Positions 1 through 17,827 of a stretch of 41,112 bases of DNA are shown piece by piece. Position numbers and translations under genes: made by a program. Below the pieces are notes generated by a model. It made no database searches. It saw nothing but the letters and a program-made list of their open reading frames with translations, and was not told the origin of the DNA. Within the stretch, counting starts at the first letter, position 1. Every line of letters begins with the position of its first letter. The stretch is from Tissierellales bacterium (GTDB taxonomy: Bacteria; Bacillota; Clostridia; Tissierellales; VENL01): NCBI GenBank assembly GCA_028280805.1, contig JANQLB010000069.1:1-41112 (forward strand). Reading direction: 5' to 3'.

Positions 1-24
1 GGGGTCAGGTATGAATAATTCACT
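1..24 (+). repeat. Left arm of 24-bp perfect inverted repeat
   Basis: The arm starts GGGGTCAGGTATGAATAATT and ends CACT. It pairs with 935-958 without mismatch. The transposase stop codon (20-22 on the minus strand) lies inside this arm. Confidence 0.9.
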
Positions 25-904
25 TATTTTCGTATCTTTTCATTATATTAATTACTTGCTCATTAATTACTACAGCATCATTTTTTATCTTAGACACCAT
101 CGATGGATTTAGTTTAAGTATATGAGAAATTTCTTTATTACTTATTCTGCAGTATTTTTCACTTAGTAACACTATTGCTTTTCGTATATCAGATAATTTC
201 TTTATCCTGCTTCTTTTTATTAAATTTATTACTTCAATGCCTTCTTGATTACATATTAAGTTAACCAATTCTCCAAATTCAATAATATTTTTATTAAATA
301 ACTCTTGTTTTGATACTTTTAATACTTGCTCTTGTTCACTTAATTTATAATCCTCAAGTTCTAATGAATTATCTAATCCCATTAATTCTAAATAAATGTT
401 AATGGCTTGTCTACGATTATCCGAAAGAATTTCTAGTACATAATCCTTATCAACTAATGATATTTTCTTTTCTAGATATTTATTATGACTGCTCCATTCA
501 TAACTAAGGTTTTTGGTTAATCCTGCTTTCAATGGATTCTGATGAATATATCTTATCAAAGATAATAAATAACTGTCTTTATCGCATACAAAAGCTTTAT
601 ATCTTTGTTCAAAAACATGACCAGATCTCTGAAACTCTCTATTATATTTTTGTGTGAAAACCTGTTGTATGCATTTCATTATTTTAGCTAACTCTACCTT
701 ACTAACCTCAATCAATAAATGCCCATGATTATCCATAATAACATAAGCATAAAGTTTAAAATCATACTTCTCTTTATATATTTTAATAATGTCTAAATAT
801 GTATTTTTCCACTTAGATTCCATGAAGATGGTGGATTTATTATTTCCTCTTACAATTACATGATATAATGCACCTTCATAATGAACTCTCAACTTTCTAG
901 CCAT
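20..904 (-). CDS. REP-associated tyrosine (Y1) transposase with C-terminal helix-turn-helix
   Basis: Y1-type transposase that would nick and rejoin single-stranded DNA through a tyrosine. The N-terminal half carries the family's metal-binding HGH motif in 'MDNHGHLLIE' and the Y-x-H-Q-N-P-L-K-A-G-L block that follows the catalytic tyrosine helix. The C-terminal 60 residues (ISNKEISHILKLNPSMVSKI) form a predicted helix-turn-helix like the DnaA-type tail seen in many clostridial members. I start it at ATG 904 (product MARKLRV...) because AGGTGATAATT gives good spacing; an in-frame GTG at 913 is possible. At about 294 residues it is full length and looks intact. It is alone between inverted repeats. 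Catalytic activity is inferred from family motifs only. Confidence 0.85.
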   Translation of the reverse strand: MARKLRVHYEGALYHVIVRGNNKSTIFMESKWKNTYLDIIKIYKEKYDFKLYAYVIMDNHGHLLIEVSKVELAKIMKCIQQVFTQKYNREFQRSGHVFEQRYKAFVCDKDSYLLSLIRYIHQNPLKAGLTKNLSYEWSSHNKYLEKKISLVDKDYVLEILSDNRRQAINIYLELMGLDNSLELEDYKLSEQEQVLKVSKQELFNKNIIEFGELVNLICNQEGIEVINLIKRSRIKKLSDIRKAIVLLSEKYCRISNKEISHILKLNPSMVSKIKNDAVVINEQVINIMKRYENK

Positions 905-934
905 AATTATCACCTATTTCATTATACCATGTTT

Positions 935-958
935 AGTGAATTATTCATACCTGACCCC
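935..958 (+). repeat. Right arm of 24-bp perfect inverted repeat
   Basis: The arm starts AGTGAATTATTCATACCTGA and ends CCCC, exactly complementary to 1-24. It is followed by a T-rich run, 959-973. Confidence 0.9.
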
Positions 959-988: not shown

Positions 989-1290
989 TAAATCTGGCTA
1001 TTGATTAAAATTTATTTTTGAATTTCTAAAATTAGTTTAATTTATCTGCAATTACCAGTACTTTATGTGAAAAAATTATTTTTCATCAAAATTAATCTTT
1101 ATGATGAACTTCTTTCACTGTCTCTACGATAATGATATTCATATGAATAGAAATCATCATTTGACCTAGGACAAACTGCATCACATCTACAATAATTAAT
1201 TATTGCCTGTACAGATGCCTCATGAGAATTTGAATTATTTCTTAATTTTCTCATAAAACCCCTCCTTCCAAAATACAATAGCCAGATTTA
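989..1290 (-). repeat. Precursor cassette 1: 15-bp inverted repeat enclosing a RiPP precursor gene
   Basis: 989-1003 (TAAATCTGGCTATTG) is the perfect reverse complement of 1276-1290. The same arms enclose the second precursor gene at 1511-1525 and 1850-1864. Homology between the two copies continues outside the arms (TATAA before, CTTCATGTTT after), so the whole unit was duplicated. On the transcript the 5' arm lies just upstream of the ribosome binding site and the 3' arm about 100 nt after the stop, so they could pair as a panhandle. A weak internal AT stem (1068-1074 with 1079-1085) is present in both copies. Function unknown. Confidence 0.8.
1099..1254 (-). CDS. Cys-containing RiPP precursor peptide 1 (CLI_3235-like, 51 aa)
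   Basis: Likely substrate of the radical SAM maturase encoded upstream. Translated by hand: it begins MRKLRNNSNSHEAS, continues to a core Y-C-R-C-D-A-V-C-P (Cys 22, 24, 28), and ends in an acidic/aromatic tail containing DDFYSYEYHYRRD and a Ser-rich end. A very strong ribosome binding site (AAGGAGGGG) lies 5 nt before the ATG. It aligns almost end to end with the second precursor: MRKL.NNS.S.E.S.Q then YC.C..VCP then DD, SY, HYR. The conserved N-terminal part is probably the leader and the CxCxxxCP-to-HYR part the core. Assignment to the clostridial Cys-rich peptide family rests on context and on my memory of that family, not on a search. Confidence 0.72.
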   Translation of the reverse strand: MRKLRNNSNSHEASVQAIINYCRCDAVCPRSNDDFYSYEYHYRRDSERSSS

Positions 1291-1672
1291 CTTCATGTTT
1301 TAAATTTAAATACTAATAATACATATAAAAATCATTTTTATTAATTATATATTCTTGTAAACAGCTTTAAACTTTATTAAAAAAGTCAAAAATATATAAA
1401 TGAATGGTTATATAATAAATCATCTATAAAATATTTAAAATTTTTTTAGTTACTTTTTAATTTGCATTATTTTTAATATTTGTTGATTTTTTTAACTTTA
1501 AATTATATAATAAATCTGGCTATTGATTAAAATTTGTTTTTGAATTTCTAAGGTTAACTTAAATTGTCTACAATTATCATGTATCTTATGTGAAAAGGTT
1601 ATTTTTCATAAGAATTAATCTTTTCACATAATTTGTTATTGGTTTATGTTATAATATTAAAGTCAGCTTAGC
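1255..1672. other. AT-rich spacer between the two precursor genes
   Basis: No credible gene. It holds the strong ribosome binding site and 5' arm of cassette 1 (1255-1290), an extremely AT-rich stretch (about 1300-1505), and the 3' part of cassette 2. The latter includes TATGTGAAAAG at 1587-1597, which is the perfect reverse complement of 1620-1630. An alternative hairpin CTTATGTGAAAA/TTTTCATAAG (1585-1612) overlaps it, so the precursor 2 transcript could fold in two competing ways after its stop codon. No T-tract terminator was seen. Confidence 0.6.
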
Positions 1673-1864
1673 CTAAAGCTTAGATCTTTTATTGCTTTGT
1701 ATGCGATAATGATGAGCGTATGAAACTAATGGATCATCATACACTGGACAAACCACACTACAGCTACAATAACGAGTTACTTGTAAAGATGTTTCATAAG
1801 ATTTTGAATTGTTTGCTAATTTTCTCATAAAATCCCTCCTTTCAAAATACAATAGCCAGATTTA
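1511..1864 (-). repeat. Precursor cassette 2: 15-bp inverted repeat enclosing the second RiPP precursor
   Basis: 1511-1525 and 1850-1864 carry the same TAAATCTGGCTATTG arms as cassette 1, again in perfect inverted orientation. It is 354 bp long against 302 bp for cassette 1; the extra length is mostly in the region after the stop codon. The two units are direct repeats of one another with diverged interiors. Confidence 0.8.
1673..1828 (-). CDS. Cys-containing RiPP precursor peptide 2 (CLI_3235-like, 51 aa)
   Basis: Second precursor. Translated by hand: it begins MRKLANNSKSYETSLQ, has the core RYCSCSVVCPVYDDP (Cys 21, 23, 27), then SYAHHYR and a basic end. The ribosome binding site is AAAGGAGGG. 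Compared with precursor 1 it keeps the CxCxxxCP cysteines, the DD pair and the HYR block but differs at most other core positions, and its tail is basic where that of precursor 1 is rich in Ser. This pattern (conserved leader, fixed cysteines, variable remainder) is typical of paired RiPP substrates. It lies 132 bp downstream of the acyl-carrier-related gene, same strand, so it may be cotranscribed with the maturation genes or have its own promoter. Confidence 0.72.
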   Translation of the reverse strand: MRKLANNSKSYETSLQVTRYCSCSVVCPVYDDPLVSYAHHYRIQSNKRSKL

Positions 1865-1960: not shown

Positions 1961-2200
1961 TTATGAAATCATTTTTATCATGTTATCAATACATAAGAAT
2001 CCTTCATCTTTTAAAAATTCATCATCTTTTTTAAATTTATACTTCTTTTTTAAATAAAAGTAAATATACAATAGTTCTTCAGATGAAAGTTTAAATGGCT
2101 CGTCAAATACATTTACAGAAGTATTCGCTAATACTAAATCCAAATCTTTCTTTAGTAAAATTGAAATATCTTTACACAGTTTTATTTTTAAATTATCCAT
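1961..2200 (-). CDS. Peptide-maturation acyl-carrier-related small protein (79 aa)
   Basis: Small acidic/lysine-rich protein matching what I recall of the 'peptide maturation system acyl carrier-related protein' family (TIGR04069) that accompanies CcpM. It is predicted to be mostly helical: an N-terminal helix, then a middle segment 'LSSEELLYIYFYLKKKY' and a short C-terminal helix, like an acyl carrier fold. I see no D-S-L phosphopantetheine attachment motif, so it is probably not a working carrier and may act as a scaffold or specificity subunit. Its ATG overlaps the end of the preceding gene by 8 bp and its ribosome binding site (AGGAGAG) is inside that gene, which indicates translational coupling. 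Confidence 0.65.
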   Translation of the reverse strand: MDNLKIKLCKDISILLKKDLDLVLANTSVNVFDEPFKLSSEELLYIYFYLKKKYKFKKDDEFLKDEGFLCIDNMIKMIS

Positions 2201-3305
2201 TATTATCTCTCCTATATGTTTCTATTAACAAATCTGTAATACGCCCTGCACTCTTTTGGTAAATCACATCTTCAATTCTAGTTTCACAAAGTTTATCAAT
2301 TTCATTTTCCAGGATATCGTTTGCCTGATTTTCCTTAATATACAGAGGTTTATCTACAAACATACTAGGTTCAGCTCCTACATTGTGTAATACATTAGAT
2401 ATATGATATAAGTCCGGTGACCTTCCCAGTAATCTTTTAAAATAAATTGATGTTTTTTCTACAATTTCTGTTTTAACACAATCAGCAGGTAATGTTACAA
2501 TTAAAAAATCCGAAGGTATTGTTTGATGCATCATATACGTATAAATACCAAAAGTGTTATGTATTTTATTGCTATACTGCATAATTCCTTTAGGAACATC
2601 AAATAATACAATATCTGGTTTTACTAAATAATCCAGCGAAGATACCCATTGATTAAATTCTACAATCTGTTCATGGGGAGAAATATCAGTTCCCATAAAC
2701 GACAAGGGGTATCCTACTGCTCCAGCTATTTTGGCATTAGGATTATTTGAGACAAGACTACATATAAATTCTCTTTGTTCAAATTCATGTTTAAGCTGGA
2801 GTGCTATATCAAGGCTATCATAACTTTCAATAAGTCCTCCGATATACACTGCCGGAACTTTGATTTTAAACTGATTGTATTTTCCACTTCTCTTAAATGC
2901 TTTTACTTGATTAGCTATCAAATTATCTAAGGGTTCTTTACAATAAGATATATTAAATTGTTTAAACATATTTATTATGTTTTCATCTTCACCATAATAG
3001 TAAACCTCTAGATTTCTGTTTTTCAAGCTTGTACAAATATATTGCAGATCGTCTTTGTTTAACTCATACGAAATGGATGATGATATCAATATAGCATCTT
3101 GTTTATCAAAATCAATATGATTAATAGATTCTATCAGTTCCGATGGTTCCTTCCTATTTACAAGATTGGCAACTGTTTTTCCTACATATCCTGAACCTAA
3201 TGCAGAAACTCCGGTTACGTCAACTCCTTTGGAGCGTAATGCTTTGTATACTGCAAAGCTTTGATCGTCTAACGGATAAATTATAAATCTTTTTCTAAAA
3301 TCCAT
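2193..3305 (-). CDS. Peptide maturation system protein, TIGR04066-like (370 aa)
   Basis: A soluble protein of about 370 residues with alternating beta/alpha segments. It opens FIIYPLDDQSFAVYKALRSK, which resembles a nucleotide-binding Rossmann start, and has a glycine-rich stretch 'GSGYVGKTVANLV' near residues 37-50. A second possible domain starts near residue 150 (VPAVYIGGLIESYDSLDIAL). No transmembrane helix or signal peptide. From memory this matches the TIGR04066 'peptide maturation system protein' that is found only next to CcpM-type radical SAM enzymes; its chemistry is not established. It starts 9 bp after the maturase stop behind GAGGTGAAAAT and overlaps the next gene by 8 bp. Confidence 0.65.
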   Translation of the reverse strand: MDFRKRFIIYPLDDQSFAVYKALRSKGVDVTGVSALGSGYVGKTVANLVNRKEPSELIESINHIDFDKQDAILISSSISYELNKDDLQYICTSLKNRNLEVYYYGEDENIINMFKQFNISYCKEPLDNLIANQVKAFKRSGKYNQFKIKVPAVYIGGLIESYDSLDIALQLKHEFEQREFICSLVSNNPNAKIAGAVGYPLSFMGTDISPHEQIVEFNQWVSSLDYLVKPDIVLFDVPKGIMQYSNKIHNTFGIYTYMMHQTIPSDFLIVTLPADCVKTEIVEKTSIYFKRLLGRSPDLYHISNVLHNVGAEPSMFVDKPLYIKENQANDILENEIDKLCETRIEDVIYQKSAGRITDLLIETYRRDNNG

Positions 3306-3314
3306 ATTTTCACC

Positions 3315-4715
3315 TCAAATTTCCTTTATTTCTTGCATAATAGTTCTTCCTACAAGCTCATAATTAAAATCTTCTCTAGATAATTCACACATAACTTTAA
3401 TTGAGTCTTTATCGTTATCATAATTATCAAATGCTTTTACACAGTTAGAACAGCCCCTAAATGCAAAGCAGTCTTGACAGTTACTGAATTGACTTCTTGA
3501 TATATTAAGTACTTTACTTGATTTTTCAGTACTCAAACCATTTACTACATCCCCAATCATATTTATTTCAGGAATTTCACTTATCCTTTCACAAGGAAAG
3601 AAGATGCCTTCGGTATTTAAAAATAATCTATGCTCACCGGGAGTACACGGTCCAGAAGGTGCAAAACATTCATCTAATTTCTCCTGTGTATCAAACCCTT
3701 CTATCATTTTACTTATCAATTGATTATAAAAATATGAATAAAAATGATTGGTCTTAAATTCGATTTCATCAAAAAAATTTAAGTAAGCAAGAAATCTGGC
3801 ATAATTTGATTTTTTATTAAAATCTTCAGTTTGTTTATATTTTTCAACTTTATTACTGTCATCAACCGTATTGATACTTATTAAAACTTCATTTAAAACA
3901 GGATAATCTGTGAATAACTTACTATATTGTGTGAAATCTTGTCGTGGATCAATTACCATATTGATTCCAAATTTGTTTTTAAAATTAGGATAATTTGAAA
4001 TAATACGTTCAACCCAAAAGATTACTTTTTCAAATACACTATCCTCCGTATTGCTGAATTTTCTGTTTAAATCATTAATTTCTTTTGGTCCATCTAAACT
4101 AATTACTAACATGAAATCATTTTGCTCCATAAAATTTAAAATATCATCACTGAACAATGTACCGTTTGTAGTAACTGTGTAGTTAACTTTTTTACCTTTA
4201 AAAATAGTCTTTGATAATTCAACAGTTTTGCAAATAGTTTCAAATTCCATTAAAGGCTCACCACCGTAAAAACCTATACTCACTTCTTTATTATCCAGCG
4301 AATTATCTCTAAGGATATTTAAGGCCTTTTCAATTACTTCAAAACTAATTTGCTTATTATTATGCAGTCTGCTTGAACCGTTATTTGATGTATAATTACA
4401 GTATGAACAGCGAAGATTACAATTTTGTGTCAGTTCTATGCTTAGATTTTTAAGTTTTCTTGATAAATAGTCATCTAGATATTTGGTTTGAGGGTGTTCG
4501 AATCTCTTAACCCTATTTGATGATAAATAGCCGTCTTTATATAAGGTGTCAAGTTCTTGTTTAGCTGAATTTGATAGTTCAGGCATGGTTTTTTCGGCAA
4601 GTATACAGTTTATGTAATTGTATAATTCAGAAGATATTGGCACTACAGAGTTCTTATTTACATCATAAAAATAATCACTTTTTAATGTCTTAAATGTATG
4701 GACATACGGCTTCAT
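3315..4715 (-). CDS. ccpM: Radical SAM/SPASM Cys-rich peptide maturase (CcpM-like)
   Basis: Cytosolic iron-sulfur enzyme expected to modify the two precursor peptides by radical chemistry, possibly thioether or other cysteine crosslinking. Residues 1-85 resemble a peptide-recognition (RRE-like) region. The radical SAM core starts at NCNLRCSYC (Cys 99, 103, 106), followed by the SAM-contact block YGGEPLME. The C-terminal SPASM region has CTPGEHRLFLNTEGIFFPCE and then NCQDCFAFRGCSNC and a last Cys, enough for two auxiliary [4Fe-4S] clusters. First gene of the maturation operon, with ribosome binding site AAGGGGGAG. The family name rests on size, architecture and neighbours; a generic anaerobic sulfatase-maturase-like SPASM protein is the alternative. 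Confidence 0.82.
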   Translation of the reverse strand: MKPYVHTFKTLKSDYFYDVNKNSVVPISSELYNYINCILAEKTMPELSNSAKQELDTLYKDGYLSSNRVKRFEHPQTKYLDDYLSRKLKNLSIELTQNCNLRCSYCNYTSNNGSSRLHNNKQISFEVIEKALNILRDNSLDNKEVSIGFYGGEPLMEFETICKTVELSKTIFKGKKVNYTVTTNGTLFSDDILNFMEQNDFMLVISLDGPKEINDLNRKFSNTEDSVFEKVIFWVERIISNYPNFKNKFGINMVIDPRQDFTQYSKLFTDYPVLNEVLISINTVDDSNKVEKYKQTEDFNKKSNYARFLAYLNFFDEIEFKTNHFYSYFYNQLISKMIEGFDTQEKLDECFAPSGPCTPGEHRLFLNTEGIFFPCERISEIPEINMIGDVVNGLSTEKSSKVLNISRSQFSNCQDCFAFRGCSNCVKAFDNYDNDKDSIKVMCELSREDFNYELVGRTIMQEIKEI

Positions 4716-16498: not shown

Positions 16499-17509
16499 CT
16501 ACAATAATCTAATATTTGCTTGTTTACATTTCTCTATCATTTCGTTCGGCCAAATAGATACCTGTACTTCACCGATATGTGCTTTTTGTAAAAAAAACAT
16601 ACAAATTCTTGATTGTCCAATTCCTCCCCCAATAGTATAAGGTAATTTTCCATCTAAAAGCATTTGATGGTAATCTAACTTCTTTCTATCTTCACATCCT
16701 GCTAACTTTAACTGTCTTTCTAATGAGTTTTTATCTACTCTTATACCCATTGAAGACAGCTCAAGTGCTATTTCTAAAAGAGGATACCAAAATATTATAT
16801 CACCATTCAAATCCCAATCATCATAATCAGGTGATCTTCCATCATGCTTAGTTCCAGACTTTAACTTTCCGCCTATTTTCATGATAAAGACTGCTCCCTT
16901 TTCTTTAGCAATCATATGTTCTCTTTCTTCCGGTAAAACATTTGGATATAAATCTTCTAGTTCTTGAGAAGTAATAAAGCTAATTTCATCTGGGAGTATT
17001 TTTGTATAGTGAGAATATAAACTGTGTAGATAATCTTCAACTTTTTTAAATACTCCATATATTTCTCTAACTGTATTTTTTAATGTAGCTTCTGTTCTTT
17101 CCTGTTTTGATATGATTTTTTCCCAATCCCATTGATCTACATATATAGAATGAATATTATCGAGTTCTTCATCTTTGCGTATAGCATCCATATCTGTATA
17201 TATTCCTTCACCTAATCCAAATCCGTATTTATATAGTGCCATACGCTTCCACTTAGCTAAAGAATGAACTATTTCAACATTTTTTTCTTTAATTCCTCCT
17301 ACTTTAAATGATATAGGTTCTTCACTTCCATTTAAATTATCATTTGTACCTGTTTCCGGAATAACGAATAAAGGTGCAGAGACTCTTGTCAAATTTAATG
17401 TCTCTGATAGGTTCCTTTCAAAACAGTCCTTTAATTTCTTAATTGCTACTTCTGTTTCATAAATTGATAAATTTGGTTTATAATCTCTTGGTAAAATAAA
17501 TTTTTTCAC
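16499..17509 (-). CDS. asnA: Aspartate--ammonia ligase (asparagine synthetase A)
   Basis: Makes asparagine from aspartate, ammonia and ATP in the cytosol. The class II aminoacyl-tRNA synthetase-like fold shows as ETGTNDNLNGSEEPISF, VVHSLAKWKRMAL-type block (IVHSLAKWKRMALYKYG), YVDQWDWEKII, SPDYDDWDLNGDIIFWYP, ELSSMGIRVD and the C-terminal TIGGGIGQSRICMFFLQKAH. I start it at GTG 17509 (product VKKFILPRDYKPNLS), behind AGGAGGAG, giving 336 residues, close to the E. coli enzyme. The open frame continues upstream to an ATG at 17614, but that extension is T-box and terminator sequence. Controlled by the T-box at 17537-17795. Confidence 0.96.
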   Translation of the reverse strand: MKKFILPRDYKPNLSIYETEVAIKKLKDCFERNLSETLNLTRVSAPLFVIPETGTNDNLNGSEEPISFKVGGIKEKNVEIVHSLAKWKRMALYKYGFGLGEGIYTDMDAIRKDEELDNIHSIYVDQWDWEKIISKQERTEATLKNTVREIYGVFKKVEDYLHSLYSHYTKILPDEISFITSQELEDLYPNVLPEEREHMIAKEKGAVFIMKIGGKLKSGTKHDGRSPDYDDWDLNGDIIFWYPLLEIALELSSMGIRVDKNSLERQLKLAGCEDRKKLDYHQMLLDGKLPYTIGGGIGQSRICMFFLQKAHIGEVQVSIWPNEMIEKCKQANIRLL

Positions 17510-17536
17510 AAAAATCTCCTCCTTTAAATTTAAAAT

Positions 17537-17795
17537 AAAAAAACCCTTCATCCCTATTATGGGACGAAAGGTTAATTTCGCGGTGCCACCCAAGTTAGCA
17601 TAATGCTCACTCATATCAGTACAGAATTAAACTCGATACTGTCCAATTATAACGGTTTGGCTCCGTCTAAATCTACTCTTATAGTAATTTCGGTTAGAAA
17701 CTCAGAGATGTTTTTCAATATAATATTCGTACCAGTCTCACACCATCACCAGCTCGCTGTAACTTGTTCTTATATCTACTTCTTCTCATCACAGT
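17537..17795 (-). promoter_or_regulatory. T-box leader of asnA (asparagine-type)
   Basis: On the minus strand: a Stem I region beginning GTGATGAGAAGAAGTA with the GCGAGCTGGTGATGGTGTGAG apical consensus, the T-box bulge GGGTGGCACCGCG (17579-17591), then a GC-rich terminator CCTTTCGTCCC...GGGATGAAGG with TTTTTTT (17537-17571). The likely specifier is AAC at 17710-17712, in GAAAAACATC opposite GATG, which is the Asn codon and agrees with the gene. Uncharged tRNA-Asn would favour the antiterminator and turn asnA on. Confidence 0.93.
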
Positions 17796-17827
17796 TTTTA
17801 AATATAATTTTTTTTATATTAACGTAT

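What the first reader, a model, noticed from the sequence alone, without database searches (positions are those of the whole stretch)
1099..1828. Two short, unlisted RiPP precursor genes with a CxCxxxCP core
Reading the minus strand gives two 51-codon genes with strong ribosome binding sites and near end-to-end similarity (MRKL.NNS.S.E.S.Q, YC.C..VCP, DD, SY, HYR). They lie next to a CcpM-like radical SAM enzyme, a TIGR04066-like protein and an acyl-carrier-related protein. Only three cysteines and a conserved aromatic/HYR tail make them unusual for a 'Cys-rich' class, so the modification and product may be new.
Basis: partly seen in the sequence, partly recalled or inferred. Interest (0 to 1): 0.78.

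Follow-up and report, generated by a model that had tools for sequence, protein, structure and literature searches.

The report
Radical-SAM peptide genes inside RNA clamps
Two neighbouring small genes encode the raw peptides for a radical-SAM enzyme that likely cross-links their cysteines, and each gene lies between two complementary DNA stretches that are predicted to pair in the messenger RNA, a layout seen at all 13 loci examined in one branch of this enzyme family and likely used to control how much raw peptide is made.

Summary
The two ORFs are real: 51 codons each (minus strand, 1254-1099 and 1828-1673), strong ribosome-binding sites, and leaders that rank first and second among 656 window segments with an HMM built from 73 other CcpM-associated precursors. 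Their operon is a divergent CcpM system; every member scores below its NCBIfam cut-off. Three cysteines are not unusual: 18 of 75 collected precursors have three or fewer.

The more novel feature was not in the finding. Each precursor lies inside a perfect 15-nt inverted repeat whose arms would form a long-range mRNA helix around the cistron. The same layout, mostly with other arm sequences, is the best match around 16 of 16 precursors at 13 loci of one CcpM clade. By shuffles with a 120-nt window, 13 of 16 clade precursors reach p<=0.05 against 3 of 59 outside. Transition mismatches in clade arms are G.U, not A.C (8:0), which favours RNA pairing.

Best reading: a likely thioether RiPP whose precursor cistron is protected or excised by an mRNA clamp. 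Chemistry and clamp function are untested.

The parts
1099..1254 (-). precursor peptide gene 1 (51 aa, core YCRCDAVCP)
   Evidence: ORF and RBS; TIGR04065 22.5 bits; rank 1 of 656 segments with a precursor HMM, E 6.2e-4
1673..1828 (-). precursor peptide gene 2 (51 aa, core YCSCSVVCP)
   Evidence: ORF and RBS; TIGR04065 18.1 bits; rank 2 of 656, E 0.28
1259..1265 (-). ribosome-binding site of gene 1 (GGAGGGG)
   Evidence: sequence
1834..1839 (-). ribosome-binding site of gene 2 (GGAGGG)
   Evidence: sequence
1276..1290 (-). 5' arm of the inverted repeat around gene 1, ends 21 nt before the ATG
989..1003 (-). 3' arm around gene 1, starts 95 nt after the stop
1850..1864 (-). 5' arm around gene 2, ends 21 nt before the ATG
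1511..1525 (-). 3' arm around gene 2, starts 147 nt after the stop
1961..2200 (-). acyl-carrier-related protein gene (79 aa), overlaps the gene before it by 8 nt
   Evidence: TIGR04069 22.8 bits, cut-off 70
2193..3305 (-). TIGR04066-like protein gene (370 aa)
   Evidence: 120.1 bits, cut-off 200; model resembles DUF1611 proteins, pLDDT 63
3315..4715 (-). CcpM-like radical SAM/SPASM enzyme gene (466 aa)
   Evidence: TIGR04068 402.3 bits, cut-off 500; model pLDDT 92, nearest 5why/5wgg

Best explanation
This is a divergent CcpM-type radical-SAM peptide operon that ends in two tandem precursor genes, each enclosed by a 15-nt inverted repeat whose arms are predicted to pair in the mRNA as a clamp that would protect or excise the precursor part of the transcript, while CcpM likely links the cysteines to downstream residues. 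Shown: the genes, leader homology, gene order, the repeats, and complementary arms around the precursors of one CcpM clade, mostly with different sequences. Predicted: the helix (folding, G.U bias). Inferred: its purpose. Enzymes and peptide appear to share one transcript, but a substrate is needed in larger amounts than its enzyme; a helix that marks off the last cistron would raise precursor over enzyme by selective processing and stabilisation. Also inferred: CcpM reads the leader with its N-terminal domain and makes thioethers from the CxCxxxC block to the Cys-free tail; export and leader removal come from elsewhere.
For: Leader homology and gene order. Perfect 15-nt arms around both genes; folds of the two units z -4.19 and -4.79, 0 of 100 shuffles as stable. 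Clade precursors 13 of 16 at p<=0.05, outside 3 of 59; two loci fetched after the idea arose (L133, L135) have it at 0 of 200 shuffles; other ORFs of the same loci 6 of 97 against 14 of 16 precursors. Cognate arms beat swapped ones, 0 of 20,000 permutations; outside the clade 1760 of 5000. G.U 8, A.C 0 in clade arms against 33 and 22 outside. 5' arms lie at or within the end of the preceding ORF in L066, L135, L008 and L067 and 16-18 nt after it in L009/L043, so the helix delimits a cistron. CcpM keeps the cluster cysteines and is nearest to solved thioether-forming enzymes.
Against: The clade was defined after the arms were seen; L008 needed a wider 5' window and is not significant alone (p 0.125), nor is L066 at that width (0.07). 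For L050 the p-value belongs to another, higher-scoring pairing; the arms homologous to L048's score lower. With both window units in one RNA, non-cognate arms pair instead (outer with outer, inner with inner). Folded pieces were cut 15 nt outside the arms, which favours the helix. Three precursors outside the clade also pass p<=0.05 (L109, L107, L151). No RNA or product data exist; thioethers have not been shown for the one studied relative, SacP23.
Confidence: 0.6

Rival explanations
1. The inverted repeat acts as DNA: ends of a movable or invertible precursor cassette, or paired regulator sites that loop the gene.
For: The unit is duplicated in the window and L067 has three precursors with like arms; perfect repeats suit recombination or protein binding.
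Against: No target-site duplication outside the arms of 13 precursors except a 4-nt match at L066; arm sequences differ between loci, also within this genome; G.U but no A.C mismatches on the mRNA strand. Orientation is no test, because only ORFs on the CcpM strand were collected.
Confidence: 0.15
2. An ordinary divergent CLI_3235-type locus: the arms are a by-product of duplication and of searching many flanks, without function.
For: Arms were found by search; several single p-values are modest; identical arms in the two window units come from one duplication.
Against: Two later loci agree; clade against outside Fisher 2.2e-9; permutation and G.U tests.
Confidence: 0.13
3. The helix is a translational lock, as in hok- or icaR-type mRNAs, that keeps precursor synthesis off until the 3' end is trimmed.
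For: 5'/3' pairing of this kind is known in toxin and regulator mRNAs.
Against: Predicted openness of RBS and start hardly changes with and without the 3' arm in most of 13 precursors; the arm stops short of the RBS.
Confidence: 0.09
4. The two ORFs are not genes.
For: Peptide 1 finds only itself among 5.8 billion proteins at that search's sensitivity; dN/dS near 0.8 and no third-position bias.
Against: Leader HMM ranks 1 and 2 of 656, RBSs, position as in relatives.
Confidence: 0.03

Closest known systems
CLI_3235/CcpM peptide systems (NCBIfam TIGR04065/04066/04068/04069), with SacP23 of Paenibacillus polymyxa as studied example (PMC10731318, passages read)
   Same: Same four gene kinds; leader followed by a Cys block and a Cys-poor tail.
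   Different: All four are below the curated cut-offs here; three Cys and two precursor copies at the 3' end; no exporter or small S8 protease seen beside the operon; each precursor inside an inverted repeat.
hbs mRNA of Bacillus subtilis: 14-nt 5'/3' UTR pairing that protects against RNase Y (review PMC7821165, passages read; the original paper is not held)
   Same: A helix of like length between sequence before and after one coding region.
   Different: Here predicted only, around the last cistron of an apparent operon, and recurring in a clade with changed sequences.
icaR mRNA of Staphylococcus aureus: 3' UTR pairs with the RBS and RNase III cleaves (same review)
   Same: 5'/3' pairing within one mRNA.
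   Different: There the RBS is covered; here the arm lies upstream of it.
Selective RNA processing and stabilisation of the cip-cel operon, Clostridium cellulolyticum (PMC4423207, abstract and passages read)
   Same: RNA structures at segment borders set unequal output from one operon in a clostridium.
   Different: There local stem-loops; here a long-range helix that would enclose the cistron.

Membership tests
TIGR04065 (CLI_3235 bacteriocin precursor) | score at or above the curated cut-off of 26 bits | tested here: not met
   22.5 and 18.1 bits
TIGR04065 (CLI_3235 bacteriocin precursor) | family leader and position beside a CcpM gene | tested here: met
   leader match residues 1-28/29; ranks 1 and 2 of 656 with a precursor HMM, the second at E 0.28 only
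TIGR04068 (CcpM) | score at or above 500 bits | tested here: not met
   402.3 bits, yet by far its best family; next is 161.5
TIGR04068 (CcpM) | radical SAM CxxxCxxC and SPASM-region cysteines | tested here: met
   C99, C103, C106, C357, C375, C413, C416, C422, C425 invariant and C443 nearly so in 50 of the 120 listed relatives that were aligned
TIGR04066 | score at or above 200 bits | tested here: not met
   120.1 bits over residues 5-362
TIGR04069 | score at or above 70 bits | tested here: not met
   22.8 bits
sactipeptide or ranthipeptide | thioether bonds from Cys | not testable with these tools
   needs mass spectrometry; nearest solved structure is titled thioether formation in sactipeptides
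PapB-type ranthipeptide | CX3D-type donor/acceptor spacing (recalled motif) | tested here: not met
   by eye: CX3D once in peptide 2 (CPVYD), absent in peptide 1 (CPRSND)
mRNA 5'/3' pairing of the hbs kind | complementary stretches before and after one coding region | tested here: met
   15-nt arms; 16 of 16 clade precursors
mRNA 5'/3' pairing of the hbs kind | helix alters RNA decay or processing | not testable with these tools
   no RNA data
translational lock (icaR/hok kind) | RBS hidden by the long-range helix | tested here: not met
   mean openness of RBS and start differs by at most 0.17 with and without the 3' arm in 13 precursors

The most novel reading that the evidence does not exclude
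A whole branch of CcpM peptide systems encodes its precursor as an RNA-clamped cistron: a long-range helix, changed in sequence but kept as a pair, encloses each precursor ORF and shields or releases it from the enzyme part of the operon mRNA, setting substrate over enzyme and letting new precursors be added one clamp at a time. Such a cis-acting RNA architecture did not turn up for RiPPs in the searches I ran.
Probability: 0.5. Interest if true: 0.75.

Novelty: new variant of a known kind. Interest (0 to 1): 0.6.

Why it matters
The peptides add a short-core, two-copy relative to a family whose product chemistry was still open in the paper I read. The clamp, if confirmed, would explain how an operon with enzymes first and precursor last can make more substrate than enzyme, and would give a sequence-independent mark (paired arms) for finding short precursor genes that family models miss: both window genes fall under the TIGR04065 cut-off. 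It also offers a clade in which 5'/3' pairing of bacterial mRNA can be tested by arm swaps.

Tried and rejected
Protein search with peptide 1 found only itself. A genome-contig scan with the window CcpM gave one weak locus. A viral-contig scan with the CcpM alignment kept 80 distant loci (at most 36% identity in the best segment), not used further. Plasmids and phages hold only distant relatives, under 60% identity. Three unannotated gut scaffolds of the phage collection carry CcpM-like genes; two have a leader-bearing small ORF, and neither has a clamp (p 0.6 and about 0.8); they were not placed on the tree. An Enterococcus plasmid region gave nothing of use. Rfam: only a T-box elsewhere in the window, and nothing around the genes at E up to 1. 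Terminator scan of 900-2300: none. PDB sequence search with TIGR04066: none. RBS sequestration: not seen. Cassette ends with target-site duplication: not seen, save 4 nt at L066. Independent-pairs test: too few pairs. A mirror-image pairing of the three Cys with S, H and R of the tail fits both peptides, but chance would often do so; not claimed. Two last genome searches brought no new clade loci.

Choices that affect counts: precursors were picked by hand from small ORFs on the CcpM strand, within about 6 kb, with CxC or CxxC and a leader-like start; others were dropped by eye, for example L106 7797-7910 and L113 4834-4923. Ten of the 63 CcpM rows bear no precursor label and count as non-clamp. 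Controls are 208 scored of 220 drawn. The 5' window was 120 nt and 200 nt, after one search showed the L008 arms further out. In one search, with L008 unlabelled, the tree needed two changes, one. In an earlier symmetric count over all loci with z of 2.5 or more, G.U:A.C was 4:1, the one A.C from L107 outside the clade. The 10:0 count used hand-listed arms and is not relied on. One search folded 13 of the 16 clade precursors.

Full report
What is there. On the minus strand the window reads CcpM-like radical SAM (4715-3315), TIGR04066-like (3305-2193), ACP-related (2200-1961), precursor 2 (1828-1673), precursor 1 (1254-1099), then a Y1-type transposase gene (913-20). The precursors are 51 aa each with GGAGG-type ribosome-binding sites. 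Their alignment scores 127 against at most 34 in 1000 shuffles. CcpM and TIGR04066 are 9 nt apart and the next gene overlaps by 8 nt, which fits one operon.

Family. All gene kinds match the CLI_3235/CcpM set of NCBIfam, under the curated cut-offs: 402.3 (500), 120.1 (200), 22.8 (70), and 22.5 and 18.1 (26) bits. An HMM of the first 34 residues of 73 precursors from other CcpM loci ranks the two window ORFs first (E 6.2e-4) and second (E 0.28, not significant alone; third is 0.95) of 656 stop-to-stop segments. They are divergent relatives, not formal members. The own genome has three strong CcpM matches (C92 482.7, C128 and C127 = window 401.9 bits); a fourth, weaker one on C20 (161 bits) sits by what looks like a six-Cys SCIFF precursor. 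Counting the window's own genome, CcpM at E<=1e-65 occurs in 11 of 249 genomes of the order, 15 of 391 sampled from the class and 4 of 398 sampled from the phylum.

Cysteine number. Of 75 precursors 2 have two Cys, 16 three, 20 four and 37 more; the window's two are among the 16. Arrays of short precursors, mostly with 2-3 Cys, stand before CcpM in L047 and L049 and after it in L044. Three Cys is within the range of the family.

Core against flanks. The two units are duplicates. The 5' UTR differs at 2 of 42 positions, the leader at 12 of 57, the core codons at 21 of 66, the last part at 14 of 30 and the 3' flank at 15 of 114 (core against all flanks, Fisher p 3.4e-4). Either the core diversified after duplication or the flanks are held back. 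In the fast core the kept residues are CxCxxVCP, a D, SY and HYR.

The inverted repeat. Each unit has TAAATCTGGCTATTG ending 21 nt before the ATG and CAATAGCCAGATTTA starting 95 or 147 nt after the stop. The 19-nt 5' pattern has no other match in the genome with two or fewer mismatches; 12 other places match with three. RNA folds of both units contain the helix, z -4.19 and -4.79, 0 of 100 shuffles as stable.

Is it general? In 60 precursors of CcpM loci, 10 had 5'/3' complementarity at p<=0.01 by dinucleotide shuffles, against 4 of 208 control ORFs. Of 15 further precursors fetched afterwards, two passed with 0 of 200 shuffles, L133 and L135, both in the same clade as the others; L151, outside it, reached 0.025. 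Over all 75: clade 13 of 16, outside 3 of 59 (L109, L107, L151) at p<=0.05. The L050 value belongs to another pairing than the arms it shares with L048, so strictly 12 of 16. With a 200-nt 5' window the three remaining clade precursors (L008 and two of L067) show arms like those of the middle L067 gene. With symmetric scoring the best match is the described arm pair, 10-22 nt, in 16 of 16. At that width 14 of 16 precursors pass p<=0.05 against 6 of 97 other ORFs of the same loci; L008 (0.125) and L066 (0.07) do not, and L050 again passes by its other pairing. Arm families: window; L009/L043; L046/L008/L067; L048/L050; L065; L066; L100; L133 and L135, with an AATGCAT element in several.

RNA or DNA? 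If the arms acted as DNA, G.T and A.C mismatches should be alike on the mRNA strand. Under scoring that treats them the same, clade arms have 8 G.U and 0 A.C (binomial p 0.004), best matches outside 33 and 22 (Fisher p 0.025); some clade loci are close relatives, so these are not fully independent. Between related loci most arm differences keep pairing: L009/L043 A-U to G.U; L048/L050 U.G to C-G and A-U to G.U, with one break at the inner end; L008 and L067 G-C against G.U at two places. Swapping 3' flanks among clade precursors lowers the summed score from 491 to 356+-18 (0 of 20,000 permutations as high); outside the clade there is no such effect (1760 of 5000). No target-site duplications flank the arms of 13 precursors, save 4 nt at L066.

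Where it sits. The 13 clamp loci form one side of a branch in a tree of 63 CcpM proteins (ultrafast bootstrap 94, SH-aLRT 77; one change in 91% of bootstrap trees); ten of the other rows have no precursor scored. In these loci the clamped precursors follow the enzymes, except one of the three in L067. In L066 the 5' arm lies inside the end of the TIGR04066 ORF; in L135 it overlaps the stop of the preceding 373-aa ORF (not matched to TIGR04066 by blastp); in L009/L043 it begins 18 and 16 nt after TIGR04066; in L008 and the middle L067 unit it lies in the end of the ACP-related ORF. So the arms enclose the last cistron of what looks like one transcript. The helix hardly changes the predicted openness of the ribosome-binding site. 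This fits protection or excision of the precursor segment better than a translational lock. Precedents: the 14-nt 5'/3' UTR helix of hbs that shields against RNase Y (review PMC7821165, passages) and selective processing of the cip-cel operon (PMC4423207, abstract and passages). Searches for such elements with bacteriocin or RiPP precursors listed nothing of the kind (listings only).

A complication. With two units and identical arms, a fold of both together pairs outer with outer and inner with inner arms (mean pair probability 0.996 and 0.968) and not the cognate ones (0.001). Folding during transcription might favour the cognate ones. Either way every arm is paired.

Verdict. The notable part is the clade-wide clamp.

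Noticed in passing
window 1-958: A Y1-type transposase gene (PF01797 59.5 bits; RAYT model 76.1 bits, cut-off 80) lies between 23-24-nt inverted ends GGGGTCAGGTATGAATAATTCAC at 1-23 and near 935-958; the contig begins at its end.
   Followed up: partly
G000 C128 (L009:1-6645) and C92 (L008): The same genome has two further CcpM operons, each with one Cys-richer precursor; C128 also has an ABC exporter next to it.
   Followed up: partly
L047:1846-4771, L049:4136-5680, L044:2758-3246: Tandem arrays of short 2-4-Cys precursors with array-specific tails (such as EHVW/EHVF in L044 and DNK in L049), nine called in L047.
   Followed up: no
L008 and L067, end of the ACP-related ORF: The 5' arm lies in coding sequence for MYALA of the ACP-related protein, so one stretch would serve protein and RNA.
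   Followed up: partly
window 2193-3305: TIGR04066 resembles DUF1611/DgcN-type proteins (Rossmann-like plus P-loop-like domain) with a changed P-loop.
   Followed up: partly
window 1099-1254 against 1673-1828: Core codons differ more (21 of 66) than the noncoding 3' flank (15 of 114), as if the core diversified after duplication.
   Followed up: yes
window 17557-17801: T-box leader (129.2 bits) on the minus strand just before the AsnA gene at 16499-17614.
   Followed up: no
G028 C3:200793-202085: CcpM homologue reported with one internal TGA.
   Followed up: no
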